DNA of 12,426 bases, taken from contig JBFMHD010000070.1 in the NCBI GenBank assembly GCA_040752395.1, positions 1 to 12,426 on the forward strand. The letters run 5' to 3'. Under the pieces are notes generated by a model. The model was not told where the DNA came from. It searched no databases and saw only the letters and a program-made list of their open reading frames with translations. Origin of the DNA: JBFMHD01 sp040752395 [NCBI: Candidatus Hydrogenedentota bacterium]. GTDB lineage: Bacteria > JBFMHD01. The position numbers were made by a program, and so were the translations under genes. Shown one piece after another: positions 1 to 12,390 of the stretch (position 1 is its first letter; every line of letters starts with the position of its first letter).

Positions 1-93
1 CAGGATCAAAAAAATATGTATGATTTTTCAATCGACCAGATAGATTATTATGTTAATAAAGCCAGAGAATTGGGACTTGTCTGGACCACCTGA
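1..93 (+). CDS. C-terminal end of an unidentified protein (partial)
   Basis: Frame 1 is open from the window edge to a TGA at 91-93. It encodes 30 residues ending in KARELGLVWTT. The start lies outside the window. The stop is 10 bp before the preferred start of the cupin gene and both are on the same strand, so this is probably the preceding gene of the same operon. The visible tail is too short to assign a family. An internal ATG at 16 could be mistaken for a start, but the frame stays open to the edge and there is no ribosome binding site before it. Confidence 0.55.
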   Translation, partial: QDQKNMYDFSIDQIDYYVNKARELGLVWTT

Positions 94-103
94 ACCGAAA
101 ATT

Positions 104-538
104 ATGATAACAGATGTTATAATCCATCCGCTTAAAGTCATAGCTGATTCAAGGGGACGAGTAATGCATATGCTTCGTGCAGACTCGTCATTGTTTAAGC
201 AATTCGGCGAAATATATTTTTCAGTGGTATACCCTGGAGTTATAAAAGGATGGAAAAAACATTTTTTTATGACACAGCATTTTGCCGTGCCGGTAGGAAA
301 TATTAAGCTTGTTATTTATGATGACAGAGATGATTCTAAATCAAAAGGAAAGAGTCAGGAGATTTTTATAGGTGAAAATAATTATATGATTGTAAGGATT
401 CCGCCAATGCTCTGGTATTCGTTTGGCTCAACAGATGATAGATTTGCTTTGATAGCAAATTGTACCGACATTGTTCACGACCCGAAAGAATATATAACCA
501 AAGATATTTCTAATAATGATATACCTTATAAATGGTGA
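104..538 (+). CDS. RmlC-like cupin, dTDP-4-dehydrorhamnose 3,5-epimerase-related sugar epimerase/isomerase
   Basis: This 144-residue protein reads like the small dTDP-4-dehydrorhamnose 3,5-epimerase-related cupins of sugar-nucleotide loci. Features seen are a D-S-R-G motif at 15-18 followed by VMHMLR, a P-G-V-I-K-G-W strand near 44-50, FAVPVG and KLVIYDDR strands, an IPP turn, and a terminal IPYKW. True RmlC enzymes use a His in an RG-x-H motif as catalytic base. Here the corresponding position is Lys51, with His53 two residues on, so simple 3,5-epimerisation is not assured and a related isomerase role on a keto-sugar nucleotide is possible. I chose ATG 104 over ATG 50 because the family homology begins at MITDVIIHPLK and because 50 would overlap the upstream gene by 44 bases. 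Neither start has a clear Shine-Dalgarno. It is expected to be cytoplasmic and to work with the aminotransferase and SDR downstream. Confidence 0.8.
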   Translation: MITDVIIHPLKVIADSRGRVMHMLRADSSLFKQFGEIYFSVVYPGVIKGWKKHFFMTQHFAVPVGNIKLVIYDDRDDSKSKGKSQEIFIGENNYMIVRIPPMLWYSFGSTDDRFALIANCTDIVHDPKEYITKDISNNDIPYKW

Positions 539-542
539 GAAC

Positions 543-586
543 CCCAACGCGGCACCCTCGACATTACCACGGACTGTTGGGTGCTG
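543..586. other. Two mutually exclusive inverted repeats in the spacer
   Basis: CCCAAC (543-548) can pair with GTTGGG (576-581). CGGCACCC (550-557) can pair with GGGTGCTG (579-586) with one G-U. The two right arms overlap at GGG 579-581, so only one stem can form at a time. The spacer is GC-richer than its surroundings. There is no U-tract, so it is not a standard intrinsic terminator. It could be an RNA switch or processing site between the cupin and SGNH genes, or just chance. Confidence 0.25.
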
Positions 587-611
587 ATTTATAGCCTGTG
601 ATATCTGAAAT

Positions 612-1835
612 ATGATGAGAAATATAAAAACAGCCTCAGTGTTTATTATTGTTGGAATGTATGCATTGTTAATACTGCTGCCCTTTATCTGGCTCGAAAT
701 GACACTCGCAGCAGCAGCGTCTGCGTTGCTCGGTATAGTACTCTATACCGCACTGATAGAACTTATTTTCCGCATGATCTACCGTTGGAAACACAAGTGT
801 GACTACATAATGATTTCCAAACTACCTTTTAATGAAATCTACCACGAGCCACATCCATACTTACCATTTGTTTACAAATCGCATGCTATGACCCAGAAAG
901 AAATGGACTCCACATACTCGCTTCATCGTGGAGAGGGATACCGATTCGGCTGTTACACCACAAATAATTACCGGCATTTAAATGGACCCAATGGTAGTCG
1001 CAACATCGTTATGCCTAAACCACAAGGAATGATCAGAATCAATTGTCTCGGAGACTGTATTACTGGTAATTATATCCAATACAAGGGCGTGGAGTACAGT
1101 TATCCGCTGGAACTTGAAAAGATTGTCAAAGCCCGATATCCTGACAATAATATTGAGATTAATAATTTCGGACTTGGATGTTACAGTAGCGCTGAGGTAT
1201 TGATAGAGTTCATTCTGAGCATTATTGATACTCAACCGGATATCGTGATTCTCTATAATGGGTATAATGATTTACCAATATCACTGACGCCTAATTTTCG
1301 AAGCGACTATTCCCATGCGCGGAAGAATCTTGGTGAAGATTATTATCGGTACAAAATTGCTTCATGGTTACCGGCGTTGCCCCTGGCTTTTTATAATTAT
1401 TTCGTCAACTTTTACCTCAGTCAGAATATTCGGTTTACACTATTCGGGGCGATTCAGCGGGGGTTGCCAGATTTTGACAGCGAATTCCGCGGATTAGAGA
1501 CTTACCGAAGAAATACTGAACACCTCATTAATATCTGTAAGTGCAACGGTATCCACATCATCTTGTCAACATACTGCTATAATCTGTATGAGAACGTGAA
1601 GAAAAGCAAAGTGCATCTAAAATATCTTGAAGGGACATTAAAACAGAATGAGATAGTGAGGAAACTGGCGGCAAAACATCAATGTTCCCTGGTTGATAAT
1701 TATGCACTGGTTCCTGGGCTCGAAGAAAATTATATGGACAGTATTCATTTTTCACCGCGAGGAATGAGGCTGGTCGCAGAAAATATCTCAAAAGAAGTTA
1801 TTAATTTGATAGAGAACATAAAAAATAGAAAATGA
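612..1835 (+). CDS. Membrane-anchored SGNH/GDSL-hydrolase-like protein with Cys at the nucleophile position
   Basis: The 407-residue protein has two hydrophobic segments (about 8-28 and 31-53), a linker, then an SGNH-hydrolase domain from about 140 to 400. Block I reads CLGDCITGN with Cys149 where the canonical GDS motif has Ser. Block II glycine is in NFGLG (187-189). Block III is YNGYND with Asn219. Block V is D376-S-I-H379. Oxyanion and Asp-His elements are therefore retained while the nucleophile is Ser to Cys (codon TGT at 1056-1058). SGNH proteins in polysaccharide loci usually add or remove O-acyl groups, so a role at the membrane in glycan O-acylation is inferred. Start ATG 612 (or ATG 615) has no obvious Shine-Dalgarno. 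Its stop is 3 bp before the deacetylase gene, implying co-expression. It could instead be a thiol-dependent acyltransferase or a non-catalytic binder. Confidence 0.75.
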   Translation: MMRNIKTASVFIIVGMYALLILLPFIWLEMTLAAAASALLGIVLYTALIELIFRMIYRWKHKCDYIMISKLPFNEIYHEPHPYLPFVYKSHAMTQKEMDSTYSLHRGEGYRFGCYTTNNYRHLNGPNGSRNIVMPKPQGMIRINCLGDCITGNYIQYKGVEYSYPLELEKIVKARYPDNNIEINNFGLGCYSSAEVLIEFILSIIDTQPDIVILYNGYNDLPISLTPNFRSDYSHARKNLGEDYYRYKIASWLPALPLAFYNYFVNFYLSQNIRFTLFGAIQRGLPDFDSEFRGLETYRRNTEHLINICKCNGIHIILSTYCYNLYENVKKSKVHLKYLEGTLKQNEIVRKLAAKHQCSLVDNYALVPGLEENYMDSIHFSPRGMRLVAENISKEVINLIENIKNRK

Positions 1836-1838
1836 TTT

Positions 1839-2834
1839 ATGAATAGTAATTTTAACAAACTTCAGTTATTTTTCACTGTTGATGGTGATTGGATTGACTA
1901 CACTTATGAAAAACTCATATCAAAAGAAAAATTTGCTCAATATCTGACTGAAGAGATTGCGTTTGCCAGACAATTCCTTCAAGGGAAGTTCATTCATTTG
2001 ATTCACGTTTCTCCGTTAGCACAGCTTTTTTTCTTAGATGAGAGATTCATCCCATATTATCATACCATAGAGAACAATGGTGGGAACATCGGTATCCATT
2101 CTCATATGGATAGGCCACTGAAAGAATATAATTTATTTCATAAGTATCAGGGTCTTATCAAGGAAGCTGTTACGCGTTTGAGGGCATCAGGTTTACGGCC
2201 CATAGCTCATCGAGGTGGCTTTTTTAGTTATGAAAATAATATGACTCGTTTTCTTGAAGACATAGGCATCCGTCTGGAACTCTCCAATTTTGTTAACCGA
2301 GCCTTCTCTTATGGAACTATCAAAGTTTGTGATTGGAGTAATTCAAAAAACTATGCTTATCGGCTTGACTATAATAATTATTTAGAAGAAGGCAAAAGCA
2401 GTGTCTGGGAGATACCTATTGGTTATGGTAATGACTCTCATCTTTATATGGAAAATCTCTCAGTTGACGATGTTATTCCACTATTACACTCGTTGAAGTC
2501 GAATCTGGCTGAACATAATTATTTTAATATCGCTGCTGTTATCACGCATTCATATTATTTCCCTTCGCTATTATATTCAAAAGAATTCAAGCCGATAGAT
2601 AATAATCTCTTTCGAAATAAATATTTATATAAACTATTTATGATAATTCAGCGGATAAACAGAATCTTTCCATTTATCAATCGAATTTTATCTCTAAAGA
2701 AGTATTCCTGGACAGCGATATATTATCGCCGTATGTTCAGACAAATAATTAAATCTCTTATTTTAGAAGCTGAATTCATTAATGGAGATGAAGCACTCTC
2801 ATATCTTGATACTCACCATTCTTTAAAAAATTAA
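1839..2834 (+). CDS. NodB-like polysaccharide deacetylase (CE4-type fold)
   Basis: The 331-residue protein carries a variant NodB homology set. Motif 1 is FFTVDGDW with Asp15 and Asp17, as in the SxDxE/DW branch. Motif 2 is GIHSHMD with His87, His89 and Asp91, where many members have H-x-H-x-H or HSxxH. Motif 3 is AHRGGFFS with His124 and Arg125, followed by LEDIGIRLELS, the usual strand after RxPxFS. Motif 4 is WEIPIGYG near 190-197 and motif 5 is ITHSYYF with His237. Family members remove N- or O-acetyl groups from sugars using a divalent metal. There is no signal peptide, so it may act on lipid-linked intermediates in the cytoplasm. The C-terminus (about 255-331) is basic and aromatic and could lie on the membrane. 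It starts 3 bp after the SGNH stop with only weak ribosome binding signal. Confidence 0.78.
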   Translation: MNSNFNKLQLFFTVDGDWIDYTYEKLISKEKFAQYLTEEIAFARQFLQGKFIHLIHVSPLAQLFFLDERFIPYYHTIENNGGNIGIHSHMDRPLKEYNLFHKYQGLIKEAVTRLRASGLRPIAHRGGFFSYENNMTRFLEDIGIRLELSNFVNRAFSYGTIKVCDWSNSKNYAYRLDYNNYLEEGKSSVWEIPIGYGNDSHLYMENLSVDDVIPLLHSLKSNLAEHNYFNIAAVITHSYYFPSLLYSKEFKPIDNNLFRNKYLYKLFMIIQRINRIFPFINRILSLKKYSWTAIYYRRMFRQIIKSLILEAEFINGDEALSYLDTHHSLKN

Positions 2835-2881
2835 ATGAGGGGTCGATTCTTACTTTTTTCAGAGGCGAAGAACCTAATAAT

Positions 2882-4249
2882 ATGTTATTACGTGTATGTC
2901 GTATAATTGATATTTTAGTAGCTGGATTGATAGGCACTCTAATTTTTATAAGTTTTATAATCTTTTTACCAGTATTTAGATTCATCAGATTTTTAACTTA
3001 TGATACTCGAACAAGAAAACCGAGGATGTTTACAACCTTTAATATGTCCTATGCGGGTTTTGTTGAACGCGGGATGGAGTGGCGTGTTCTTGACCAGGAC
3101 CTTGATAGCTTTTTTGAAAGGGCAATCGTTTTTCTTATTATTGCAGATGTTCAAAATACTATAATCGCTAAAGATGGAGGGCTAATAATTATCGACAATA
3201 AGCATCTGTTCAAAGACGTTGTATGGCTAAAAGAAAATTTTAGATTTTTATATATTTTATTAAGTTTTATTTATGAAACAATGCTGATAAGTTTATTGGT
3301 CTGGAAGCATTCAATTGATTTTAGTCGGGTGCGGGGACCGTTTTATGAAGGATTATTAGGGCTTGCTCAAAAATGTCTTAATGGTATACCATATATCATT
3401 TCAGTCCATGCTGATTGGGACAGGATGTATAAAGAAACCGGTCAAGGAGTATTATGCAGGTATAAATTCATAGATGAAATAGTCGAGAGGATTAATTTAT
3501 TTTTTGCTGATTCTGTCATCTCTTTTTTTCCTGCGCAAGAAAGCTACCTTTTAAGACACCGGGCACGAAAAAATAGGATCAGGCTATCTTATGTCCCAAC
3601 ACGTTTTTATGAATTATTTTCCAAGATTGATAAGTCCCCACAACAACTCAAAGAGGAATTACATCTCCCGCTTGATAAAAGAATTCTAATGTATGCAGGC
3701 CGTTTCAGTGTTGAAAAATATGTTGATGATTTGATAAGAGTATTATACGAGATACGAAAAAGTATAATAGATAGTGTACTGGTGTTGATAGGTCGTGGAC
3801 CTGCAGAATTTGAGTTACAGAGGCTATGCACAGACCTTGGGTTCTCAGAGCAGGATGTAATCTTTATTCCTTATCAGAACCATAGTAATCTTGCAAAATA
3901 TTACCTCTGCGCTGATGTACATTTAGCGCCAGATGGCGGAAGCAGTATGAGAGAGGCCTTGTTTTCAGGAAAGCCAGTGGTTGGTTATAATATCTGGACA
4001 GTCACAGAATTTATTGAAGATGGTAAAAATGGGTTGATAGTAGAATTCCGCAATATCCAGAAATTAGCTGAAGCTGTCATTTCACTTCTTAATAATCCGG
4101 AATTATCACACTCTATTGCTGAAAACGCAGTAAAAGATGCTTATTCTTTATATTCCGCACCAAAAGTATATGCTCATCGGAAAAAGATATATGGAGAATT
4201 ATTAAAGAATCGATACCCGAATCTTGAAATTAGCTATGAAGAATCTTAA
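2882..4249 (+). CDS. GT4-family glycosyltransferase with N-terminal membrane anchor
   Basis: This 455-residue protein begins with a strongly hydrophobic segment (about 11-32) followed by basic residues, so the catalytic domains are probably held on the inner face of the membrane. The C-terminal half is GT-B, GT4-like: LMYAGRFSVEKYVDDLI near 275-291, VLVLIGRGP, the LAKYYLCADVHLAPDGG region, REALFSGKPVVGYN (Glu358) and EFIEDGKNGLIVEF. The N-terminal Rossmann half includes YIISVHADWDRM, a plausible acceptor-site loop. The usual E-x7-E pair is imperfect: Glu358 is present, but the residue eight before it is Pro350, next to Asp351. It probably transfers a sugar from a nucleotide donor to a lipid-linked glycan; donor and acceptor are not predictable. 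ATG 2882 is the only sensible start in frame, and AGAGG at 2861-2865 is rather distant. It overlaps the next gene by 14 bases. Confidence 0.83.
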   Translation: MLLRVCRIIDILVAGLIGTLIFISFIIFLPVFRFIRFLTYDTRTRKPRMFTTFNMSYAGFVERGMEWRVLDQDLDSFFERAIVFLIIADVQNTIIAKDGGLIIIDNKHLFKDVVWLKENFRFLYILLSFIYETMLISLLVWKHSIDFSRVRGPFYEGLLGLAQKCLNGIPYIISVHADWDRMYKETGQGVLCRYKFIDEIVERINLFFADSVISFFPAQESYLLRHRARKNRIRLSYVPTRFYELFSKIDKSPQQLKEELHLPLDKRILMYAGRFSVEKYVDDLIRVLYEIRKSIIDSVLVLIGRGPAEFELQRLCTDLGFSEQDVIFIPYQNHSNLAKYYLCADVHLAPDGGSSMREALFSGKPVVGYNIWTVTEFIEDGKNGLIVEFRNIQKLAEAVISLLNNPELSHSIAENAVKDAYSLYSAPKVYAHRKKIYGELLKNRYPNLEISYEES

Positions 4250-5096
4250 AATTGACTACAAAAAGGAAGATAATAATTTTATTATATCAGCGTATTTGGA
4301 TAATATTGTTAAAGGTGAGATGAGTGTGAAGGAGCTTCCCTGGGATACTGGATTGTTAGGGTTTAAGTGCATACGGATAACAGGTATATATTTTAAAGAG
4401 AATAATTTTGATTATGAGATTGCAAAGCAGATGGTCAGTTATCTTCTTGCAAGCGATATTATTGGATTCAATTTAATAATGTTCAGGTTTCCAAGTATTC
4501 AAATGAAGCTCGGGCAAAACCTTGAATCGCTTGGTTTCTATCAGGTTGAAAACCTGCTTACTTTTAAATTTACTCTGTCTGAACCAATTAGGCCAGCATT
4601 TGACGCTCTATCTGGTGTAACGATTTGTTTGTTAAACAGAGAGGATGAAAAAGAAATAAATTCTGTCTGTGAGATCGCAGCAAATGAATTTAAATACAGC
4701 CGATATCATATGGATCCACATATTCCATTTGATAAAGCAGCTAATCTAAAAGCTCAGTGGACTCGGAACTCCTGTCTTGGTAGAGCTACTGCTGTTTTTG
4801 TTGCTCGATATAATTCTAATATAGTCGGTTTTATATTGTGTAATATTTTGACAAAGTGTGATTCACTTATTAGTGTAATAGACCTTATAGGAGTCGATTC
4901 AAGGTTTGCGAATCAAGGGATAGGAAAAGCTCTGGTCGGTTATCTTCTTACATTCAGTAAGGAGAAAGGAGCCAGGTACTGTCTTGCTGGTACTCAGAGT
5001 CATAATCTTGGTTCGATACGAATGTATCTTAAAAGTGGGTTTATGCTTGATGCCTCTGAACTTACTTTTCATTACTATAAGGATAATAACCAATGA
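4236..5096 (+). CDS. GNAT N-acetyltransferase, WecD/RffC-like (amino-sugar nucleotide acetyltransferase)
   Basis: The 286-residue protein has a C-terminal GNAT domain. IDLIGVDSRFANQGIGKAL (acetyl-CoA loop QGIGKA near 227-232) is followed by an N-x-x-S-x-x-x-Y-x-x-x-GF signature that ends in LTFHYY. The N-terminal segment carries LPWDTGLLGFKCIRI (about 34-48), resembling the WDS-x-FFG entry motif of WecD, which acetylates dTDP-4-amino-4,6-dideoxygalactose. The adjacent aminotransferase supports an amino-sugar nucleotide substrate, though the exact amino position and sugar are unknown. It is longer than WecD (about 224 residues), as are several two-lobed relatives. I chose ATG 4236 over an in-frame TTG at 4224. 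Its stop overlaps the aminotransferase start in an ATGA, suggesting translational coupling. Confidence 0.8.
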   Translation: MKNLKIDYKKEDNNFIISAYLDNIVKGEMSVKELPWDTGLLGFKCIRITGIYFKENNFDYEIAKQMVSYLLASDIIGFNLIMFRFPSIQMKLGQNLESLGFYQVENLLTFKFTLSEPIRPAFDALSGVTICLLNREDEKEINSVCEIAANEFKYSRYHMDPHIPFDKAANLKAQWTRNSCLGRATAVFVARYNSNIVGFILCNILTKCDSLISVIDLIGVDSRFANQGIGKALVGYLLTFSKEKGARYCLAGTQSHNLGSIRMYLKSGFMLDASELTFHYYKDNNQ

Positions 5097-6235
5097 AACA
5101 ATTTAAGATTAATTTCAATGCGATACAACTTAAGCAAGCTGATATCAAGCGAGTTATCGAGGTTTTAGAAAGCGGTTGGCTTGCTCATGGTAAATATTCT
5201 AAAGCACTGGAGCAGGAGATATGTAAGTTGACCGGTTCTAAATACTGCGTTCTTGTTTCAAGCTGTACTGCAGCATTACATCTGTCTATGATTGCATGTT
5301 GTGTAGGTCGAGGCGATGAAGTTATTGTGCCGGTGCAGACCCATGTTGCTACAGCACATGCTGTTGAATATACTGGTGCTAAACCGGTTTTTGTTGATGT
5401 GGAACTTGACACTGGAAATATTGATGTCAGATGTCTAAAAAAAGCTATAAGCCCAAAAACCAAAGGAATTATAGTAGTACATTTAGCCGGGCAATCAGCT
5501 CGAATGAAAGAGATTATGGATATCGCCAAGAGGAGAGGTGTTTTTGTGGTTGAAGATTGTGCTCATGCTCCTGGCACGTTATATCGTGGTCAACATGTCG
5601 GCACATTTGGCATCACAGGATGTTTTTCGTTTTATCCCACAAAACATATAACCACAGGTGAGGGGGGCGCTGTTATAACTAATGACGTGAAAATATATAA
5701 TAAAATTAATCATTATAAAGCATTTGGTATTGATACGCCGCCTGAGTTGCGGAAGAGACCCGGCGTCTATGATGTTTGCGGCCTCGGTTATAATTACCGT
5801 ATGACAGATTTTCAGGCTGCTATGGGTTATAGCCAGATAATAAGGTTTAAGACAGAGAATCTAAAATTAAGACAGAAAATTGCAAAAAATTATATTAGAC
5901 TTCTTTCTCCGTTGCGAAACAAAATCAGTTTCCCAGATTTCAACAAAGAATGCTCATATTTCTTTTTCCCGATTTATATTAAAAATGATATTCGGGATCT
6001 GGTTATTATGGATCTCAAGGAAGCACAGGTCGGGGTCAGTATACATTATGCTACAATTGTGCCGATGATGTCATATTACAAAAATAAATATAATCTGAGC
6101 GAAGATTTATTTCCAAATGGCAGTTATATCGCCCGACATCAGATTACCTTGCCTGCTCAACCATCTCTGACGTTAGCTGAACAGAAATATATTGCTGCAG
6201 TTTTAAAGGCAAGTTTAAGGAGAAGATCACAATGA
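5093..6235 (+). CDS. DegT/DnrJ/EryC1/StrS-family PLP-dependent sugar aminotransferase
   Basis: The 380-residue protein is full length for the family. Seen are LVSSCTAALHLSM (PLP phosphate-binding turn near 59-71), VEDCAHAPG with Asp155 and His158, and FSFYPTKHITTGEGG with the Schiff-base Lys184. GYNYRMTDFQAAMG follows, then an HYATIVP segment in the C-terminal domain. These enzymes convert keto-sugar nucleotides into amino sugars using glutamate or another amino donor. The order acetyltransferase then aminotransferase parallels WecD/WecE, so a 4-amino (or 3-amino) dideoxy sugar that is then N-acetylated is the likely product. Regiochemistry cannot be read from sequence alone. Start ATG 5093 forms an ATGA overlap with the preceding stop, with AAGG at 5079-5082 upstream. 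It in turn overlaps the SDR gene by ATGA at 6232. Confidence 0.92.
   Translation: MKQFKINFNAIQLKQADIKRVIEVLESGWLAHGKYSKALEQEICKLTGSKYCVLVSSCTAALHLSMIACCVGRGDEVIVPVQTHVATAHAVEYTGAKPVFVDVELDTGNIDVRCLKKAISPKTKGIIVVHLAGQSARMKEIMDIAKRRGVFVVEDCAHAPGTLYRGQHVGTFGITGCFSFYPTKHITTGEGGAVITNDVKIYNKINHYKAFGIDTPPELRKRPGVYDVCGLGYNYRMTDFQAAMGYSQIIRFKTENLKLRQKIAKNYIRLLSPLRNKISFPDFNKECSYFFFPIYIKNDIRDLVIMDLKEAQVGVSIHYATIVPMMSYYKNKYNLSEDLFPNGSYIARHQITLPAQPSLTLAEQKYIAAVLKASLRRRSQ
6217..6222 (+). promoter_or_regulatory. Strong ribosome binding site for the SDR gene
   Basis: AAGGAG sits 9 bases before ATG 6232, inside the end of the aminotransferase gene. It is the clearest Shine-Dalgarno in the upstream operon and fixes the SDR start at the ATGA overlap. 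Confidence 0.7.
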
Positions 6236-7218
6236 GTAATAACGTTTTTGTTAATGGAGGGATGGGATTTATTGGCCACCATATATGCATAGAACTCAAA
6301 AAAAATGGTTATTTCCCAATAGCGATAGACCATATGAATCAGTTTGAATTCAGAAGTGATAAAGAGCTGTATCAGAGTTTTATCAATGAGCGATATGAAC
6401 TTTTGAAGTCCCATTCAATCAAGGTTGTCATATTGGATACAGGTGATCAGGACCATTATATAAAACTTCTTAAAGAGTATCAGCCAGTGATTATTTATCA
6501 TATGAGTGCGATTGCGAGCGCTAAGATTTGCCAGACCAATCCCCATCTTGCTATAACTGAAAATCTAATGAAAGTAGAACAGGTGCTTAATTATATCTTA
6601 CAATCAAAAATAAAAACTAAATTCGTTTTCGCTTCGTCTTCTGTGGCTTATGGTGATTTCGAAACAGACTCGGTTAATGAGGAAACAATGCTTAATCCTA
6701 GAACCGTCTATGGATTTACCAAAAAAACTGCAGAAGAACTGATACGGATGTATAAGGCTTTATATGGGTTAACTTATACTATACTTAGACCATCAGCATT
6801 ATATGGTCCCCGGTGTATCAATCTGCGGGTAAGTCAGATTATTATTGAACGTGCCATAAGGGGTGAAACCATAATTATCAATGGTGATGGTATGGAGCGT
6901 CTTGATTTTAGTTTTGTTGATGATACTGTTCAGGGTTTTATCAAAGCAGGTATAAAACCTGAGGGTAATAATCAGGTATTCAATATCACCTATGGCGAAT
7001 CACGCCCTGTGAATCTATTAATTGATATTGTTAGAGAATATTTTCCAGATTTAAAAATTGAGTACCGTGAACGCGATAAAATAATGCCCAAACGAGGAAC
7101 ACTTGACATTAGTAAAGCCCGAAAGATTCTTGGTTATTTACCAGAGTATCCTGTTGAAAGAGGATATCCACTATACATTGAATGGTATTTGAAACGCGAG
7201 AAAAACAAGAGGGGGTAG
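6232..7218 (+). CDS. NAD-dependent extended SDR (nucleotide-sugar epimerase/reductase)
   Basis: This 328-residue Rossmann protein has the NAD-binding motif NGGMGFIG (Gly9, Gly12, Gly15), a Y-H-M-S-A strand with the usual downstream Asn (TENLM), and ASSSVAYGD with the catalytic Ser around 135-137. The active-site pair is Tyr160-x3-Lys164 (YGFTK), followed by LRPSALYGPR and FSFVDDTVQGF. Nucleotide-sugar 4,6-dehydratases carry an Asp-Glu pair after the catalytic Ser (SSDEVYG). That pair is absent here, so a 4-epimerase or 4-ketoreductase role is more likely than dehydration. No nucleotide-sugar 4,6-dehydratase is visible in the window, so the keto intermediate must be made elsewhere. The stop falls 5 bp before the inferred TTG start of the GT2 gene. 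Confidence 0.87.
   Translation: MSNNVFVNGGMGFIGHHICIELKKNGYFPIAIDHMNQFEFRSDKELYQSFINERYELLKSHSIKVVILDTGDQDHYIKLLKEYQPVIIYHMSAIASAKICQTNPHLAITENLMKVEQVLNYILQSKIKTKFVFASSSVAYGDFETDSVNEETMLNPRTVYGFTKKTAEELIRMYKALYGLTYTILRPSALYGPRCINLRVSQIIIERAIRGETIIINGDGMERLDFSFVDDTVQGFIKAGIKPEGNNQVFNITYGESRPVNLLIDIVREYFPDLKIEYRERDKIMPKRGTLDISKARKILGYLPEYPVERGYPLYIEWYLKREKNKRG
7209..7215 (+). promoter_or_regulatory. Shine-Dalgarno that selects a TTG start for the GT2 gene
   Basis: GAGGGGG lies 8 bases before TTG 7224 and spans the last SDR codons. The alternative ATG 7182 has no such site and would overlap the SDR gene by 37 bases. The residues it would add (MVFETREKQEGVAN) do not look like GT2 sequence. The TTG start gives the usual short lead into PLVSVVMNCYNAE. 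Confidence 0.7.
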
Positions 7219-7223
7219 CTAAT

Positions 7224-8063
7224 TTGGACCACTTAACCGAACCATTAGTAAGTGTTGTAATGAATTGTTATAATGCAGAAAAATATCTAAAAAAAGCTAT
7301 GGATAGCGTATTTAAACAGACCTATAAAAACTGGGAGATAATTTTTTTTGATAATGCATCGACTGACAACAGTGCTGAGATCGCAAGAAGTTACGGAGAA
7401 AAAGTAAAGTATTATAGAAGCGATAAAACTTATCCCCTTGGTGATGCCCGCAACCTTGCACTCGAAAAAGTTAACGGTGAATACATAGCTTTTCTTGATT
7501 GCGACGATGTCTGGAACCCTGAGAAATTAGAAAGACAAACCATAGAATTTGAAAAAGATAAGGATTTGGGTTTTGTTTTCTCGGATGCGTATTACACTGA
7601 TGAAACTGACAATGTAGGCGATAGGATTCTGAAATATGTTGATACCTCGAAAATTAAGGGTCCGTTTGATATTCTAAAGAGAGGGGTTCTGATAGTCTGG
7701 TCAATGATAATGATAAGAAAAAAAATATTAGATAGAGTAGGTCTTTTTAATCCAGAACTTATGTTTTGTGAAGACGATGATATGATTTTTAAATTAGCAT
7801 TTGAAGGCCCGTTTAAATTAATAAACGAGCCGCTTGGCTGCTGGAGATATCATTCTACTAATTTGACAAGCAATATAAATTTTAAAATGAAAAAGAAAGA
7901 AAAAGTAATCGTTCTGAGAAACATTTTAGAAACTAAAAAATTGTCGATTTTAGAGAAAATTGAATTAAGACTGTTTATATATAAAACAATTATGACATTC
8001 GAGATGGTATGCAAAATATTTGATAAAATCCGAGAATACATCTTTAGGTGGGTAAAAAGTTAA
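7224..8063 (+). CDS. GT2-family glycosyltransferase
   Basis: With the TTG start the protein has 279 residues. It is a GT-A glycosyltransferase: LVSVVMNCYNAEKYL at 8-22, IIFFDNASTDNSAEIA (the D-x-S-x-D loop), GDARNLAL, and the metal/nucleotide-binding FLDCDDVW (Asp92-x-Asp94). EDDDM follows at 183-187 and supplies the likely catalytic acidic residue, with the LGCWRYHSTNLTS motif after it. The C-terminal 60 residues are basic and hydrophobic (KMKKKEK, then amphipathic stretches) and probably associate with the membrane. It would transfer one sugar to a growing lipid-linked glycan. The stop codon lies inside a short AAAAGTTAAAAGT repeat. An ATG 7182 start is possible but less likely on ribosome-binding grounds. 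Confidence 0.88.
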   Translation: MDHLTEPLVSVVMNCYNAEKYLKKAMDSVFKQTYKNWEIIFFDNASTDNSAEIARSYGEKVKYYRSDKTYPLGDARNLALEKVNGEYIAFLDCDDVWNPEKLERQTIEFEKDKDLGFVFSDAYYTDETDNVGDRILKYVDTSKIKGPFDILKRGVLIVWSMIMIRKKILDRVGLFNPELMFCEDDDMIFKLAFEGPFKLINEPLGCWRYHSTNLTSNINFKMKKKEKVIVLRNILETKKLSILEKIELRLFIYKTIMTFEMVCKIFDKIREYIFRWVKS

Positions 8064-8067
8064 AAGT
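8055..8067. repeat. 13-bp dispersed repeat, inverted copy near the right edge
   Basis: AAAAGTTAAAAGT here is an exact reverse complement of 12359-12371. It covers the last codons and TAA stop of the GT2 gene. It is low-complexity, so chance is possible, but the right-hand copy sits in a longer array of the same kind. Confidence 0.35.
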
Positions 8068-8116
8068 GAGAAGTATCAGAAAACACCAACACCAGACGCC
8101 CAATTAAAAAATTATC

Positions 8117-8145
8117 TTGTCAAAACTTTCCGGTAGCTGTATACT
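8117..8145 (+). promoter_or_regulatory. Sigma70-type promoter upstream of the antitoxin-like gene
   Basis: TTGTCA (8117-8122) and TATACT (8140-8145) are separated by exactly 17 bp; each hexamer matches consensus at five of six positions. Transcription would start near 8152, giving a leader of about 138 bases before ATG 8290. It lies in the first real gap after the upstream operon (8064-8289) and could drive the small gene, the HAD phosphatase and the GT4 that follow. No terminator hairpin is evident between 8063 and the promoter. Confidence 0.6.
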
Positions 8146-8276
8146 TTGCTGTGAATTAAGCATTAGGGTAACTTCCGCATAGTATTATTAAATTTTATTA
8201 ATATTAGATGGAGGTCCTTTATCTTTTCAATATTTTTTCAATTTAAAAAGTGCTTAACTATAGATACATTTAATAT

Positions 8277-8282
8277 AGAGGT
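8277..8282 (+). promoter_or_regulatory. Ribosome binding site choosing ATG 8290
   Basis: AGAGGT is 7 bases before ATG 8290 but only 1 base before the in-frame ATG 8284, so translation most likely begins at 8290. Confidence 0.65.
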
Positions 8283-8289
8283 AATGGAA

Positions 8290-8499
8290 ATGGCAACAAC
8301 AAGAAATGTATTAACTATCCCTAAAAAAATTACAAGAGGCGAAGAATTGGTTATTCTAACAAGAGAGGAATACGAAAATACGATTGCACAAAATAAAGAA
8401 ATTTTAAAAGTGTTAAAAATAATTGCTGAGGGTGAAGAAACTTATCGTAAAGGAGAAACTATTTCTGCATCTTCTTTAGAAGAATCTCTGGTTAATTGA
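8290..8499 (+). CDS. Small antitoxin-like protein, apparently without a partner toxin
   Basis: The 69-residue product starts MATTRNVLTIPKKITRGEEL, then VILTREEYENT, a predicted helix with acidic and basic residues (NKEILKVLKIIAEGEETYRKGE), and ends SASSLEESL. This arrangement resembles small type II antitoxins: a short beta N-terminus with PKKI-x-RGEELV and REEYE, and a C-terminal tail that wraps the toxin. I recognise the style rather than a specific family; a PHD/YefM- or AbrB-like assignment is unproven. Such genes are normally followed within a few bases by a RelE/ParE- or PIN-type toxin gene. Here the next 198 bases hold no toxin-length frame, so it appears to be an orphan or the survivor of a broken module. 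It has its own promoter at 8117. Confidence 0.6.
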   Translation: MATTRNVLTIPKKITRGEELVILTREEYENTIAQNKEILKVLKIIAEGEETYRKGETISASSLEESLVN

Positions 8500-8543
8500 G
8501 CAGTCGGGGAAAAAACTCTCCGGTCCCTTATATAAATAGTAGT

Positions 8544-8564
8544 AGGGGCAAATTTATCCGCCCT
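8544..8564. repeat. Eroded GGGGC-type palindrome
   Basis: AGGGGC (8544-8549) and GCCCT (8560-8564) flank an AT-rich centre, giving an imperfect palindrome. It resembles short intergenic palindromes found in many bacterial genomes. It lies in the 8500-8697 spacer, where no toxin gene is found. Confidence 0.3.
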
Positions 8565-8590
8565 GAGAACAGGTGGAAGCAAGCCCAAAT

Positions 8591-8632
8591 ACCAATTGCC
8601 AGAAAACAATGGCTGTCTAATAAACAATTGGT
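8591..8632. repeat. Inverted repeat in the spacer before the HAD gene
   Basis: ACCAATTG (8591-8598) is exactly reverse-complemented by CAATTGGT (8625-8632). A nested GCCA (8598-8601) / TGGC (8610-8613) lies between them. It could be an operator or the relic of a small mobile element. There is no T-tract, so it is not a canonical terminator. Confidence 0.35.
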
Positions 8633-8697
8633 GTGGTGGCAAGAAGCAAGATAACGGAAAACGATATATGACGGACTGTGCGGTCGGACGCGATACT

Positions 8698-9330
8698 ATG
8701 TCTGATTTTTTTTTGAAATATCCGGTTATCGTTCTTGATTTTGATGGCGTGATTATCGACAGCGCAAAAATAAAAACTGATGCATTCGCAGAACTATTTA
8801 ATAATAACAAAGAGTTGATTGAGTTCCATAAAAAAAATACTGGCATCTCAAGATTTGTGAAGTTTAGATATTATTATGAAAATATATTAAAAGAACCTGT
8901 TTCTGATGAAAAACTTGATGAACTTAACAAAAAGTTCAATAAAATAGTAATGGATAAAATTAAGGATACTGGATTGATAAGTGGAATAAAGGAGTTTTTA
9001 GAACGATATTGGCTTGATAAAAAACTTTATATATGTTCCGGAGCACCGATAAACGAGGTAATGGAGATTGTTAAAAGTAAAGATATAATAAAATATTTTA
9101 AAGGTATCTATGGTCAACCAGGAGAAAAAAATGACATCCTTAATGAAATCGCAGATATAGAAAAAGTCAAAAAAGACAGGATATTATTTATCGGGGATGG
9201 TCTATCAGATTATGAGGCTGCTAAAAAGACAGGAATAGATTTCATAGCATTTATACATAATGAAAATAAAGATTATTTTGAAAAACTGGATGTCTGTAAA
9301 ATATATGAAAGTTTTTTATCAGTATTGTGA
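8698..9330 (+). CDS. HAD-superfamily phosphatase
   Basis: From ATG 8698 the protein has 210 residues and shows all four HAD motifs. Motif I is VLDFDGVIIDS with Asp14 and Asp16. Motif II is YICSGAP with Ser114. Motif III is Lys144 in GEKND. Motif IV is FIGDGLSDYEAAKKTG with Asp167 and Asp171. The cap between motifs I and II includes HKKNTGISRF, a style common in HAD enzymes of surface-sugar loci. A sugar phosphate or phosphoglycolate-like substrate is plausible, but specificity is not readable. The frame is open upstream to a TTG at 8596 and an ATG at 8668. The residues before 8698 do not look like HAD sequence and lie over the spacer repeats, so I reject those starts. No strong ribosome binding site precedes 8698. 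Confidence 0.85.
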   Translation: MSDFFLKYPVIVLDFDGVIIDSAKIKTDAFAELFNNNKELIEFHKKNTGISRFVKFRYYYENILKEPVSDEKLDELNKKFNKIVMDKIKDTGLISGIKEFLERYWLDKKLYICSGAPINEVMEIVKSKDIIKYFKGIYGQPGEKNDILNEIADIEKVKKDRILFIGDGLSDYEAAKKTGIDFIAFIHNENKDYFEKLDVCKIYESFLSVL

Positions 9331-9345
9331 TATAGAAGCGAGCAT

Positions 9346-10542
9346 ATGGTCTCTGGTAAAGATATTATTTGTATCTCACCCTTGAGATATGAAGAACATT
9401 TAACAGGTAAACAACAGATAATGAACCTATTATCAAAAAATAATAGGATATTTTTCTGTCAACGAGAGACAGGGCTTGAACATATTATTAAACATCCACA
9501 ATACTTTCTTGACGTAATAAAATATTTTACAAACTCTATATATACTAAAAATAATATTACTTTTGTTGAATCGCCTCTTCTTTTACCAGGCAGGTATTAC
9601 TCTGAAACTATAAATAAATATAACCAGCTGATTATTGCGAGACGCTTGTTGAGATTATATAATAAATATAATATTAAAGACCCGATACTCTGGACATTTG
9701 TGCCACATTCAGCAGAATTGATTATTCGATTACCTCACTCTTTAGCTATATATCATTGTTCTGAATATTATGATGTTCTATCAGAGGGTAGAAAAAAAGT
9801 TGTTCTGACAAAACTTGAATCTGAGTTGTGTGAAAAGGTCGATATTATATTTGCTGTTACAAATGGTATCTATGAAAAGGTTAAAAATATAGCACCTGAT
9901 AAAAGTTATCTCTGCTATAATGGTGTCGATACCGCACTCTTTAATAAAACCTTGAATATAAACGAGAGAGAAATCCCACAGGATATCGCATCCATCAAAA
10001 AACCAAGACTGGGACATATCGGGATGTTTAACGGAAAGGTGGATATTGATTTGATAATAAAAATTGCAAAGGAAAATCCAACCTGGAATCTTATTTTTGT
10101 TGGTAAGATATTTTATTCGGATATTGATAAAATAAAATTTATGAAGTTAGTAAGATTAAATAATGTCCATTTTCTTGGGAACCGTAACCCAAAAGTTTTG
10201 CCATACTATATAAAACCAATGGACTGCTGCTTGATTCTGGGGAAGCGAAATAAATGGACAGAAATCACAAGACCATTAAAGTTTTATGAATATCTTGCAT
10301 CAGGTAAACCCATCGTATCTATAGGGTTTCCTGAGTTGAATGAATTTTCTGATTGGATATTTATTTCAGAGAACTATGAGGGATATATCGATAACATAAG
10401 GAAGATACTCTCAGGGATGGTAAAAAAAACCTCTGAAGAACAAGCAAAATTTGCAGAAAGATTTTCTTGGGAGAGAGTAGTTGATAGAATATCAGTGATT
10501 ATTGAAGAAAAATTGAGTGTCAGAATGTTAAAAGAGACGTAG
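9346..10542 (+). CDS. GT4-family glycosyltransferase, TuaH-like
   Basis: The 398-residue GT-B protein opens with IICISPLRYEEHLTGKQQIM, the pattern of TuaH-type glycosyltransferases, in which the glycine loop is replaced by a W/Y-x-x-x-x-x-x-QQ lead. It continues with LAIYHCSEYYDVL, DIIFAVTNGIYEKV and CYNGVDTALF, then the C-terminal domain: LGHIGMFNGKVDIDLI (Gly223 on), NLIFVGKI, NVHFLGNRNPKVLPYYI, and RPLKFYEYLASGKPIVS (309-324, Glu315) at the nucleotide-binding site. No membrane segment is evident. It probably adds a sugar to a cell-surface glycan; neither donor nor acceptor can be assigned. It follows the HAD gene by 15 bases and is likely co-transcribed from the promoter at 8117. Confidence 0.85.
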   Translation: MVSGKDIICISPLRYEEHLTGKQQIMNLLSKNNRIFFCQRETGLEHIIKHPQYFLDVIKYFTNSIYTKNNITFVESPLLLPGRYYSETINKYNQLIIARRLLRLYNKYNIKDPILWTFVPHSAELIIRLPHSLAIYHCSEYYDVLSEGRKKVVLTKLESELCEKVDIIFAVTNGIYEKVKNIAPDKSYLCYNGVDTALFNKTLNINEREIPQDIASIKKPRLGHIGMFNGKVDIDLIIKIAKENPTWNLIFVGKIFYSDIDKIKFMKLVRLNNVHFLGNRNPKVLPYYIKPMDCCLILGKRNKWTEITRPLKFYEYLASGKPIVSIGFPELNEFSDWIFISENYEGYIDNIRKILSGMVKKTSEEQAKFAERFSWERVVDRISVIIEEKLSVRMLKET

Positions 10543-10582: not shown

Positions 10583-10820
10583 GAGGAAAAAGCTCTTTGA
10601 AAAAGCTGCAGTTAAAAATAAAAAGTTGATCCTTGCAACACAATTTCTGAAAAATATGAGAGAGTACAAAACTCCGCTTATTGCAGAAGTTAATGATATT
10701 TATAATGTGATTAAAGCCGGCGGATGGGGGAGACAGTTGTCTGAAGAAACAGCGATAGGTAAATACCCAAAGGAAGCTGTAAGAATTATTAATAAAATAA
10801 GCAATACCTGTCGTATTTGA
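10578..10820 (+). pseudogene. Pyruvate kinase remnant (internal fragment of the catalytic barrel)
   Basis: An open frame from 10578 to the TGA at 10818-10820 encodes about 80 residues. They align by eye with the active-site side of pyruvate kinase. LILATQFLKNM matches the family's VIVATQMLESM; TPLIAEVNDIYNVIKAG matches TRAEVSDVANAVLDG; and LSEETAIGKYPKEAVRIINKI matches the LSGETA-x-GKYP-x-EAV signature. The upstream residues KKLFEKAAVKNKK fit the preceding helix. A full enzyme has about 470 residues. Both ends are missing here, the DAVML stretch reads WGRQL, and the Gly of LSGETA is Glu. The only in-frame start is TTG 10626, without a ribosome binding site; the AGGGGGAGG at 10578-10586 leads to no in-frame start. 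It is best read as a gene relic. A short expressed paralogue is possible but unlikely. Confidence 0.72.
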
Positions 10821-10824
10821 TTTA

Positions 10825-12180
10825 TTACTTTCTTTTTAAGCCGTAGCCGAGTTTCTGGACCTCTTTACGTATCCTTTCCTCATCATCTTTAGTAATACCC
10901 AACTTTAATGCGCCGAGGTCTTTACTATACTCTTCTTTTTTATTTTTTAAGATATAAATATCAGGTGGGTATTTTTCTAAATGCTCTTTTTTGAATAAAT
11001 TAGTATGAACCTTGCCATCAAATAAACCAGGCACCACAATCCCCCTCATATAAAGAAATGTAGGTAATATATCCTCAACATTTATTCCTCCGCTACCACA
11101 AGCAGGATTAAATTCATCCCCTCTTAGCGAAATAAAACCATTAAATGAAATAGCAAAACCATTATCATTAATAATAGATGCAGGTTCATAGTCATTGAAT
11201 ATCTTTAATGTGTTATCATTTGATATAAGAATAATATCAGGTGCGTTTTTGAAGTATTTTCCAATGAATAAACTCTCTTTTGGTAATACGCTAATATCTG
11301 GGGGCAGTTCTTTTTTTAATTCTTCAATGATATTATCTCTTAACTCATTAAAAGCTATACCTTTATTTACTATACCAAATGGTTCTCTTTCTCTTAAGTT
11401 TATAGAAATAGTGCCTTCATTTAAGGAATAGGCTTTTGTTTTTTCCCAAACAAAGTGTTTAAATATTTTTTGCAGATAAGAGGTACTGCCTATACCAATA
11501 GCATTTTTGATCGTATTTATCATTTTTTGCGAATGAGAGGATTCTTTATATTTGAAGGATATAAAGTCTTTTTTTGTTAACCACTCTATAAGATTGAAAC
11601 TTGAACTATATTTTTTAAGGGTATATAGAGATGAAAAAATTATTGTGGCGTCTTTAGAAAAACTAATAATTTTGTTAAAAAGATCTTCAATCCAGGAGTC
11701 GACCCTAGCATTTCCCTGAAAATACAGATAAGAAAAGTCAACTATTATCTCGCAGAATTCACAGCCGACTGATTCTAACAGGCTTATCTCTTTATCAATA
11801 AAAGATTTAAAGGTTTCGATGTTATAACATCTAAATTTTTTTATAGAGCCTCTCCTTATAGTAAATATTTTTTCTTCGTCGTAATCGTAAAATATTGAAA
11901 TCGAGTGTAATGATACATTATTTTCAAGAAGATAAATGTACAAACCTTTATGTTCGAGGTTTATAAAAAACGGGATGAGATTAGCGGTTTTATTATCGAT
12001 AAAATATTTTCCGAAGACATTGTGATTTTGGGGCAGTAACCCTGTTCTGTAAGTTTCTCTTAGAGCCCAGAGATTAGGGTATTGGAAAGAGGTTTTATAA
12101 GTGATTGTAAATAAGTTTGAAAATTTATTCAAAACTATATTGTCTGGTAAGCCGTTGAACTGAATATGAATATATCGCAT
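10825..12180 (-). CDS. Alkaline-phosphatase-superfamily phosphohydrolase-like protein with altered catalytic motifs
   Basis: The 451-residue protein resembles predicted AP-superfamily phosphohydrolases/phosphomutases in overall order. The N-terminal strand is MRYIHIQFNG. The nucleophile region is QYPNLWALRETYRTGLLPQNHNVFG (33-57). Then come the SFNLIEWLTKKDFISFK equivalent of N-x-WL, EKTKAYSLNEGTISINLREREPFGIV (246-271), GKYFKNAPDIIL (307-318) and VEDILPTFLYMRGIVVPGLFDGKV (368-391). The catalytic residues look lost. The first metal Asp is Asn9. The Thr/Ser nucleophile position falls on Gln33-Tyr34. The DHG motif is Ser184-Leu185-Tyr186. The late metal His aligns with Ile344. It is therefore probably a non-catalytic paralogue. 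AAAAGGG (12189-12195) lies 8 bases before its ATG. It is convergent with the + strand genes, 4 bp from the pyruvate kinase relic's stop. Confidence 0.65.
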   Translation of the reverse strand: MRYIHIQFNGLPDNIVLNKFSNLFTITYKTSFQYPNLWALRETYRTGLLPQNHNVFGKYFIDNKTANLIPFFINLEHKGLYIYLLENNVSLHSISIFYDYDEEKIFTIRRGSIKKFRCYNIETFKSFIDKEISLLESVGCEFCEIIVDFSYLYFQGNARVDSWIEDLFNKIISFSKDATIIFSSLYTLKKYSSSFNLIEWLTKKDFISFKYKESSHSQKMINTIKNAIGIGSTSYLQKIFKHFVWEKTKAYSLNEGTISINLREREPFGIVNKGIAFNELRDNIIEELKKELPPDISVLPKESLFIGKYFKNAPDIILISNDNTLKIFNDYEPASIINDNGFAISFNGFISLRGDEFNPACGSGGINVEDILPTFLYMRGIVVPGLFDGKVHTNLFKKEHLEKYPPDIYILKNKKEEYSKDLGALKLGITKDDEERIRKEVQKLGYGLKRK

Positions 12181-12265: not shown

Positions 12266-12300
12266 AAGGCACAAAGGCACAGAGGCACAGAGGCACAAAG
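12266..12300. repeat. Tandem octamer array (A/G)AGGCACA, four and a partial copies
   Basis: Units are AAGGCACA, AAGGCACA, GAGGCACA, GAGGCACA, followed by AAG. The array lies in a 246-base stretch (12181-12426) with no coding frame that I can support. Confidence 0.8.
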
Positions 12301-12326
12301 ATTGAAAGATTAAAAAATTGAAAGAT
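12301..12326. repeat. Direct repeat ATTGAAAGAT
   Basis: ATTGAAAGAT occurs at 12301-12310 and 12317-12326, separated by TAAAAA. It directly follows the octamer array and forms part of a repeat-rich intergenic zone. Confidence 0.65.
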
Positions 12327-12358
12327 ACGGCAAGGAAGTGTATATTTTTGCTTTCTTT

Positions 12359-12390
12359 ACTTTTAACTTTTGACTTTTTACTTTTAACTT
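12359..12390. repeat. ACTTTT(A/G)ACTTTT simple repeat
   Basis: Successive ACTTTT-type units, varying by an A, G or T between them, fill this stretch. The first 13 bases are an exact reverse complement of 8055-8067. From 12397 a GGAGTTAGAAGTTAGGAGTT array follows to the edge. Confidence 0.6.

What the first reader, a model, noticed from the sequence alone, without database searches (positions are those of the whole stretch)
10825..12180. Alkaline-phosphatase-superfamily scaffold that appears to have lost all catalytic residues
The C-terminal two thirds keep the family's structural signatures (INLREREPFGIV, KNAPDIIL, DILPTFLYMRG, PGLFDGKV). Every active-site position I can align is changed: Asn9 for the first metal Asp, Gln33-Tyr34 at the nucleophile, Ser-Leu-Tyr for Asp-His-Gly at 184-186, and Ile344 for a metal His. 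The frame is intact over 451 codons, so this looks like selected loss of catalysis, giving a binding, scaffold or regulatory protein. It sits convergent to a polysaccharide locus.
Basis: partly seen in the sequence, partly recalled or inferred. Interest (0 to 1): 0.6.

Follow-up and report, generated by a model that had tools for sequence, protein, structure and literature searches.

The report
Phosphatase-fold protein with dismantled active site
An unidentified microbe carries an intact gene for a relative of metal-dependent phosphodiesterases that has lost its metal-binding residues but kept much of the rest, so it has probably stopped being an enzyme and become a binding or helper protein beside sugar-coat genes.

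Summary
Window 10825-12180 (-) is an intact 451-codon gene with normal codon usage. It is a diverged PF01663-type member of the alkaline phosphatase (AP) superfamily: below Pfam's cut-off alone, but BLASTP 7e-29 (single comparison) to a Candidatus Brocadia relative and 2e-36 to a profile of six intact relatives; an alignment-based AlphaFold model matches NPP-family structures at Z 19.8. No metal ligand is kept: Asp->Asn9, Asp and His of the DxxxH loop deleted or replaced, Asp-His->Leu185-Tyr186, last His->Ile344 or Ala343. The nucleophile position cannot be aligned consistently. Of 164 related frames, 135 keep all seven residues; only the window has none. Its catalytic half has decayed far more than its C-terminal half (8 of 22 against 12 of 13 conserved non-catalytic columns kept; most lopsided of 147 sequences), without a stop. 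This fits a maintained pseudoenzyme. No orthologue with the same losses was found in 1258 genome searches (overlapping sets, capped lists), so selection and function stay inferred; a binding or regulatory role in surface-glycan assembly is my best guess.

The parts
10825..12180 (-). AP-superfamily (PF01663-type) pseudoenzyme gene, 451 aa
   Evidence: ORF; homology; codon usage; model
12154..12156 (-). codon of Asn9, in place of the first metal Asp
   Evidence: alignments
12070..12093 (-). residues 30-37: region of the lost or unalignable Thr/Ser nucleophile
   Evidence: alignments disagree: Thr30, gap, Tyr34 and Leu37
11695..11724 (-). residues 153-162: region where the DxxxH metal-ligand loop of relatives is deleted or replaced
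   Evidence: gaps; Ser/Ser; neither ligand kept in any alignment
11623..11628 (-). codons of Leu185-Tyr186, in place of Asp-His of the DHG motif
11149..11154 (-). codons of residues 343-344 (Ala-Ile), in place of the last metal His
10843..11454 (-). residues 243-446: conserved C-terminal half (up to 39% identical to relatives over about 200 residues)
11368..11403 (-). INLREREPFGIV motif (residues 260-271)
   Evidence: N261, R265, G269 and V271 kept
11227..11250 (-). KNAPDIIL motif (residues 311-318)
   Evidence: D315 kept
11008..11073 (-). DILPTFLYMRGIVVPGLFDGKV (residues 370-391)
   Evidence: D370, P373, G389 kept
50..10542 (+). surface-polysaccharide gene cluster convergent to the gene (cupin epimerase-like, SGNH hydrolase, glycosyltransferases, GNAT, DegT-type aminotransferase, NAD epimerase, HAD phosphatase)

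Best explanation
The gene encodes a pseudoenzyme: a protein descended from PF01663-type phosphodiesterases, many of which lie in surface-glycan gene clusters, in which the two-metal active site has been dismantled while the C-terminal half and the core order of motifs were kept. Shown: homology, absence of every metal ligand, uneven conservation, open frame. Inferred: it no longer does metal-dependent phosphoryl transfer, it is still made and useful, and it works by binding, as a partner of an active paralogue or as a sensor or carrier of a glycan intermediate. The partner version is my first choice because relatives often occur as two or three paralogues side by side.
For: Homology; model pLDDT 75.5, pTM 0.76; 593 of 1000 chains at Z>=2, the 50 listed all NPP-family at Z 19.1-19.8. 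Ligands: of 164 distinct frames 135 have all seven canonical residues; only the window has none (12 others are gapped or cut, 2 have two changes each, 14 are of a ligand-variant group). Twenty full-length frames of about 440-470 aa, one of them L115 already, also have all seven. Catalytic columns kept 0 of 5, other N-half 8 of 22, C-half 12 of 13 at the 90% level; on a second alignment 0 of 4, 9 of 22, 17 of 19. Largest mean N/C identity gap of 147 sequences, 15.4% against 26.7%. Codon usage 0.114 in frame, -0.19 to -0.61 in the other five; neighbours 0.037 to 0.151. Neutral simulation: 0.15% of 2000 runs stop-free after 0.3 substitutions per site in the N half. Paralogues side by side: three each in L013 and L014.
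Against: No orthologue with the same losses was found, so there is no direct test of selection on this form. The AlphaFold model used an alignment of intact relatives; without it the prediction failed (pLDDT 34.2), so the fold claim rests mainly on sequence homology. The HMM match of residues 44-108 scores -0.7 bits: the N-terminal 130 residues are recognisable only by order of motifs, and the loop and nucleophile placements change with the alignment. The short length is no sign of loss: frames of about 450 aa with all seven residues exist. Between 1% and 5% of ordinary pairs have N/C gaps as large as the window's mean (1st percentile -12.7, 5th -9.4 points). No active paralogue is seen in the window and the host genome is not held. 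The end branch is extremely long (3.65), which a decaying gene would also give.
Confidence: 0.6

Rival explanations
1. A gene in early decay: a former phosphodiesterase duplicate under no selection that has not yet gained a stop.
For: Longest branch of 147; no orthologue found; next to debris, a pyruvate-kinase remnant at 10596-10781 (+).
Against: 451 codons without a stop at 30% G+C (chance 1.7e-17 for a random frame); the N half has about 15% identity to its relatives yet no stop; codon usage like the neighbours'; C-half conserved columns kept 12 of 13.
Confidence: 0.15
2. Still an enzyme with remodelled chemistry: the fold binds a phosphorylated glycan or lipid and uses other residues, with one metal or none.
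For: A separate clade of the family (13 rows, SH-aLRT 99) has changed catalytic residues that are partly conserved (T->H, D->H, DHG->GDG or GDA), so active-site remodelling occurs in this family; the non-metal residues N261, R265, G269 and D315, invariant in alignment A7, are kept.
Against: The window protein does not group with that clade and lacks even the two His residues that clade keeps.
Confidence: 0.15
3. Active enzyme whose ligands are simply misaligned.
For: The nucleophile region and the DxxxH loop align differently in different alignments, and Thr30/Ser31 lie near.
Against: The DHG and last-His positions are flanked by well-aligned conserved columns and read Leu-Tyr and Ile or Ala; no alignment places a metal ligand in any of the six positions.
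Confidence: 0.04
4. A different fold with chance motif resemblance.
For: Pfam score below the curated cut-off (18.5 against 23); single-sequence structure prediction failed.
Against: BLASTP 7e-29 over 357 columns, profile 2e-36, structural Z 19.8 (from an alignment-based model).
Confidence: 0.01

Closest known systems
PF01663 'alkaline phosphatase family' proteins (e.g. L013:6957-8630 Candidatus Brocadia; L014:6972-8630 BMS3Abin06; haloarchaeal plasmid proteins)
   Same: C-terminal half and order of motifs; many lie in glycan clusters
   Different: Most have all seven catalytic residues (135 of 164 frames); most are about 500-580 aa, though a group of about 450 aa with an intact site exists
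Ligand-variant clade of the same family (L007, L008, L027, L029, L035, L044, L060, L071, L072, L078)
   Same: Same family; changed catalytic residues; several are also strongly diverged in the catalytic half
   Different: They keep the His of the DxxxH loop and the last His; the window lacks both and does not group with them
NPP/autotaxin and phosphonoacetate hydrolase structures (ENPP5 5vem, autotaxin 4zg6, PhnA 3szy)
   Same: Fold: Z 19.8 at 3.6 A over 295-304 residues for 5vem and 4zg6; 3szy found by the profile of alignment A1
   Different: Metal-dependent enzymes with a Thr nucleophile (recalled)
PorX effector domain (PMC11320123; passages read)
   Same: AP-superfamily domain used in a regulatory protein, with dimerisation mattering
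   Different: PorX keeps a zinc site and has reported phosphodiesterase activity

Membership tests
AP superfamily, PF01663 phosphodiesterase family | Common ancestry / fold | tested here: met
AP superfamily, PF01663 phosphodiesterase family | Pfam curated score reached by the protein on its own | tested here: not met
   18.5 bits against 23
AP superfamily, PF01663 phosphodiesterase family | Six metal ligands (Asp, Asp/His loop, Asp-His, His); set as described for PorX in PMC11320123 | tested here: not met
   none kept
AP superfamily, PF01663 phosphodiesterase family | Thr/Ser nucleophile | tested here: inconclusive
   Thr30, gap, Tyr34 or Leu37 by alignment
AP superfamily, PF01663 phosphodiesterase family | Phosphoryl-transfer activity | not testable with these tools
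   needs purified protein
Pseudoenzyme | Descent from an enzyme family with loss of required catalytic residues | tested here: met
Pseudoenzyme | Maintained by selection | tested here: inconclusive
   open frame, codon usage, C-half conservation; no orthologue for dN/dS
Pseudoenzyme | Non-catalytic function shown | not testable with these tools
   needs experiment
Ligand-variant clade (this report) | Groups with the clade and keeps loop His and last His | tested here: not met
   (placement of the window's long branch is unsure)

The most novel reading that the evidence does not exclude
The protein is one of a so far undescribed class of AP-superfamily pseudoenzymes that serve surface-glycan clusters: duplicates of the cluster's phosphodiesterases that shed the metal site and now act as non-catalytic subunits or glycan-intermediate sensors for their active sister proteins.
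Probability: 0.25. Interest if true: 0.6.

Novelty: new variant of a known kind. Interest (0 to 1): 0.4.

Why it matters
Pseudoenzymes are well described for kinases and for phosphatases of other folds (recalled), but my searches (listings only, in an open-licence library) showed no paper on a stand-alone bacterial one in the AP superfamily. If maintained, it gives a case where both metal sites were removed while the rest stayed, and it points at the unexplained function of this PF01663 family in bacterial and archaeal glycan clusters, including a clade with partly conserved, altered ligands.

Tried and rejected
Close orthologues: single-protein scans of genome contigs and viral contigs found none; alignment scans of viral contigs found none; the alignment scan of genome contigs found 195 relatives, of which the best 80 were kept, the best by E-value being L013 (35% over the C-terminal part). 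Whole-genome searches with the protein (2+62+395+392+47+7+8+345 = 1258 genomes, sets overlapping, three of them sampled from larger groups, cut-offs 0.01 to 1e-15, and at most four candidates per genome scored) gave no near orthologue. (cut-off 1e-5) also listed weaker matches in frames of about 440-470 aa, the window protein's size; I fetched 19 of these beside L115, and one cut frame, and found all seven residues in 20 of 20 full-length ones and the five aligned residues in the cut one. So they are not the missing orthologues, and shortness alone does not mean loss. Phage records: no match. NCBIfam: none for this protein; PHROGs: nothing below E 0.19.

Host: not identified. A neighbouring gene (1839-2831) gave no match at 1e-20 in 61 genomes of the Brocadia order; that answer has no positive control, and the Brocadia similarity does not place the host.

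Ligands elsewhere in the chain: not supported by any alignment made. Different fold: rejected. Single-sequence AlphaFold as an independent check failed and says nothing either way. Tree placement of the window: too long a branch to place; not relied on.

Caveats on counts: one search left out frames with 20 or more unknown residues, which dropped at least one family member (L029:5360-6973, ligand string DHHHGDH). The tree left out rows over 650 aa; one search used rows of 400-720 aa. Promoter and terminator scans near the gene were at chance level.

Full report
What is there. The minus-strand ORF 10825-12180 is a complete 451-codon gene. Its codon usage fits a model made from ten neighbouring genes only in the annotated frame (0.114 per codon; other five frames -0.19 to -0.61; neighbours 0.037 to 0.151). 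The window has 34% G+C and the gene 30%. The neighbouring genes, all on the plus strand, form a surface-polysaccharide cluster ending at 10542, convergent to this gene.

Family. Alone, the protein reaches PF01663 only below the curated cut-off (18.5 against 23 bits). Relatives settle it: haloarchaeal plasmid proteins annotated 'alkaline phosphatase family' (tblastn down to 6e-7), then a Candidatus Brocadia protein (L013:6957-8630; BLASTP 7e-29 for the single comparison, 28% over 357 columns) and a BMS3Abin06 protein (L014:6972-8630; 8e-23). A profile of six intact relatives from L013 and L014 finds the window protein at 2e-36 among 1280 ORFs. The stretches matched are 146-217 (12.5 bits) and 229-446 (110.9 bits); residues 44-108 align but score -0.7 bits. 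An AlphaFold model made with 31 relatives has pLDDT 75.5 and pTM 0.76 and matches ENPP5 and autotaxin at Z 19.8, 3.6 A over 295-304 residues (Foldseek). Without the alignment the prediction fails (pLDDT 34.2), so sequence homology is the main evidence for the fold.

Active site. The seven catalytic residues of relatives (ligand set as described for PorX, PMC11320123, passages read) were tabulated over 164 distinct family frames: 113 DTDHDHH and 22 DSDHDHH, that is 135 with all seven; 12 are gapped or cut; 2 have two changes each; 14 belong to a ligand-variant group; only the window has none. In the window the first Asp is Asn9, Asp-His is Leu185-Tyr186 and the last His is Ile344 or Ala343. The Asp and His of the DxxxH loop are gapped in two alignments and Ser/Ser in a third; neither is kept anywhere. 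The nucleophile cannot be placed: Thr30, gap, Tyr34 or Leu37. The model has strand 24-29 and helix 37-46; in relatives the nucleophile sits at the helix start (recalled), which would put its place near residues 34-37. Compared with the 557-aa Brocadia protein the window also lacks stretches around residues 101-128, but frames of about 450 aa with all seven residues exist in the Brocadia order (20 of 20 full-length frames examined), so the short length is not by itself part of the loss.

Uneven divergence. Over 146 pairings the window shares 15.4% of N-half and 26.7% of C-half positions with relatives; this mean gap of 11.4 points is the largest of 147 sequences, and the next five are all of the ligand-variant clade. 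7085 other pairs in the same range of C-half identity have a mean gap of 2.7 points (s.d. 4.0, 1st percentile 12.7, 5th percentile 9.4), so single ordinary pairs can be as lopsided; it is the mean over a row that stands out. At columns conserved in at least 90% of relatives the window keeps 0 of 5 catalytic, 8 of 22 other N-half and 12 of 13 C-half residues; on the second alignment 0 of 4, 9 of 22 and 17 of 19. A gene free to decay would be expected to lose both halves alike. Neutral substitution of the N half leaves 0.15% of 2000 runs free of stops at 0.3 substitutions per site. These results favour a protein kept for something other than catalysis. They do not replace orthologues, which I did not find.

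How it may work. Many relatives sit in glycan clusters: glycosyltransferases, flippases or polysaccharide enzymes are annotated beside the gene in L005, L006, L008, L009 and L010, sugar-modifying genes near it in L001 and L003; L002, L004, L007, L011 and L029 show little or none of this. In L013 three paralogues lie with a beta-propeller protein, a GT9-type protein, a PIG-L deacetylase and a GNAT, and L014 looks alike by eye. No N-terminal signal or membrane segment is evident by eye, so a cytoplasmic protein is likely. I therefore infer a non-catalytic partner of active paralogues, or a binder of a phosphorylated glycan intermediate. The window contains no active paralogue and the host genome is not held, so the partner is hypothetical. 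Against: the long branch (3.65) and the nearby pyruvate-kinase remnant would also suit decay.

Comparison with what is known. By descent it belongs to the PF01663-type branch of the AP superfamily; as an enzyme it fails the defining metal-ligand test. It works, if the reading is right, like other pseudoenzymes. Literature searches (listings only) showed no AP-superfamily pseudoenzyme of this kind; the library lacks most subscription papers. PorX shows an AP-superfamily domain in a regulatory protein, though with zinc and activity.

Verdict. Observation confirmed; interpretation partly supported; a new variant of a known kind, interest 0.4.

Noticed in passing
window 10596-10781 (+): Remnant of a pyruvate kinase barrel domain (PF00224, 38.5 bits), without start or N-terminal part, between the last glycosyltransferase gene and the pseudoenzyme gene.
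   Followed up: partly
L007, L008, L027, L029, L035, L044, L060, L071, L072, L078: A clade of PF01663 proteins (13 rows in the tree, SH-aLRT 99) with changed catalytic residues: Thr to His, Pro or Gln in most, Asp to His in the DxxxH loop, and GD, AD, LH, LQ, SV or GH in place of DH (L060 keeps DH). The S-G-D motif recurs in rows of L029, L044, L071, L072 and L078, so it may be a remodelled rather than dead site.
   Followed up: partly
L029, L044, L071, L072, L078: In these five loci two ligand-variant PF01663 genes lie near each other; in L072 they are followed by asparagine synthase and a polysaccharide flippase, and in the Planktothrix plasmid L007 the single gene is also close to asnB. L029's neighbours are amino-acid metabolism genes instead.
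   Followed up: partly
L013, L014: A similar cluster of three intact PF01663 paralogues, a PQQ-like beta-propeller protein, a GT9-type protein and a GNAT in Candidatus Brocadia (Pfam) and, by eye, BMS3Abin06; function unknown.
   Followed up: no
L115, L146-L164: A group of about 440-470 aa PF01663 frames in the Brocadia order, 20 of 20 examined with all seven catalytic residues (DSDHDHH).
   Followed up: partly
window 12266-12390: Three short tandem repeats (8-, 8- and 7-base units) upstream of the pseudoenzyme gene.
   Followed up: no
window 1839-2834 (+): 331-aa protein in the polysaccharide cluster without a Pfam match above its cut-off or an NCBIfam match and without a match at 1e-20 in 61 genomes of the Brocadia order; by eye it resembles a polysaccharide deacetylase.
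   Followed up: no
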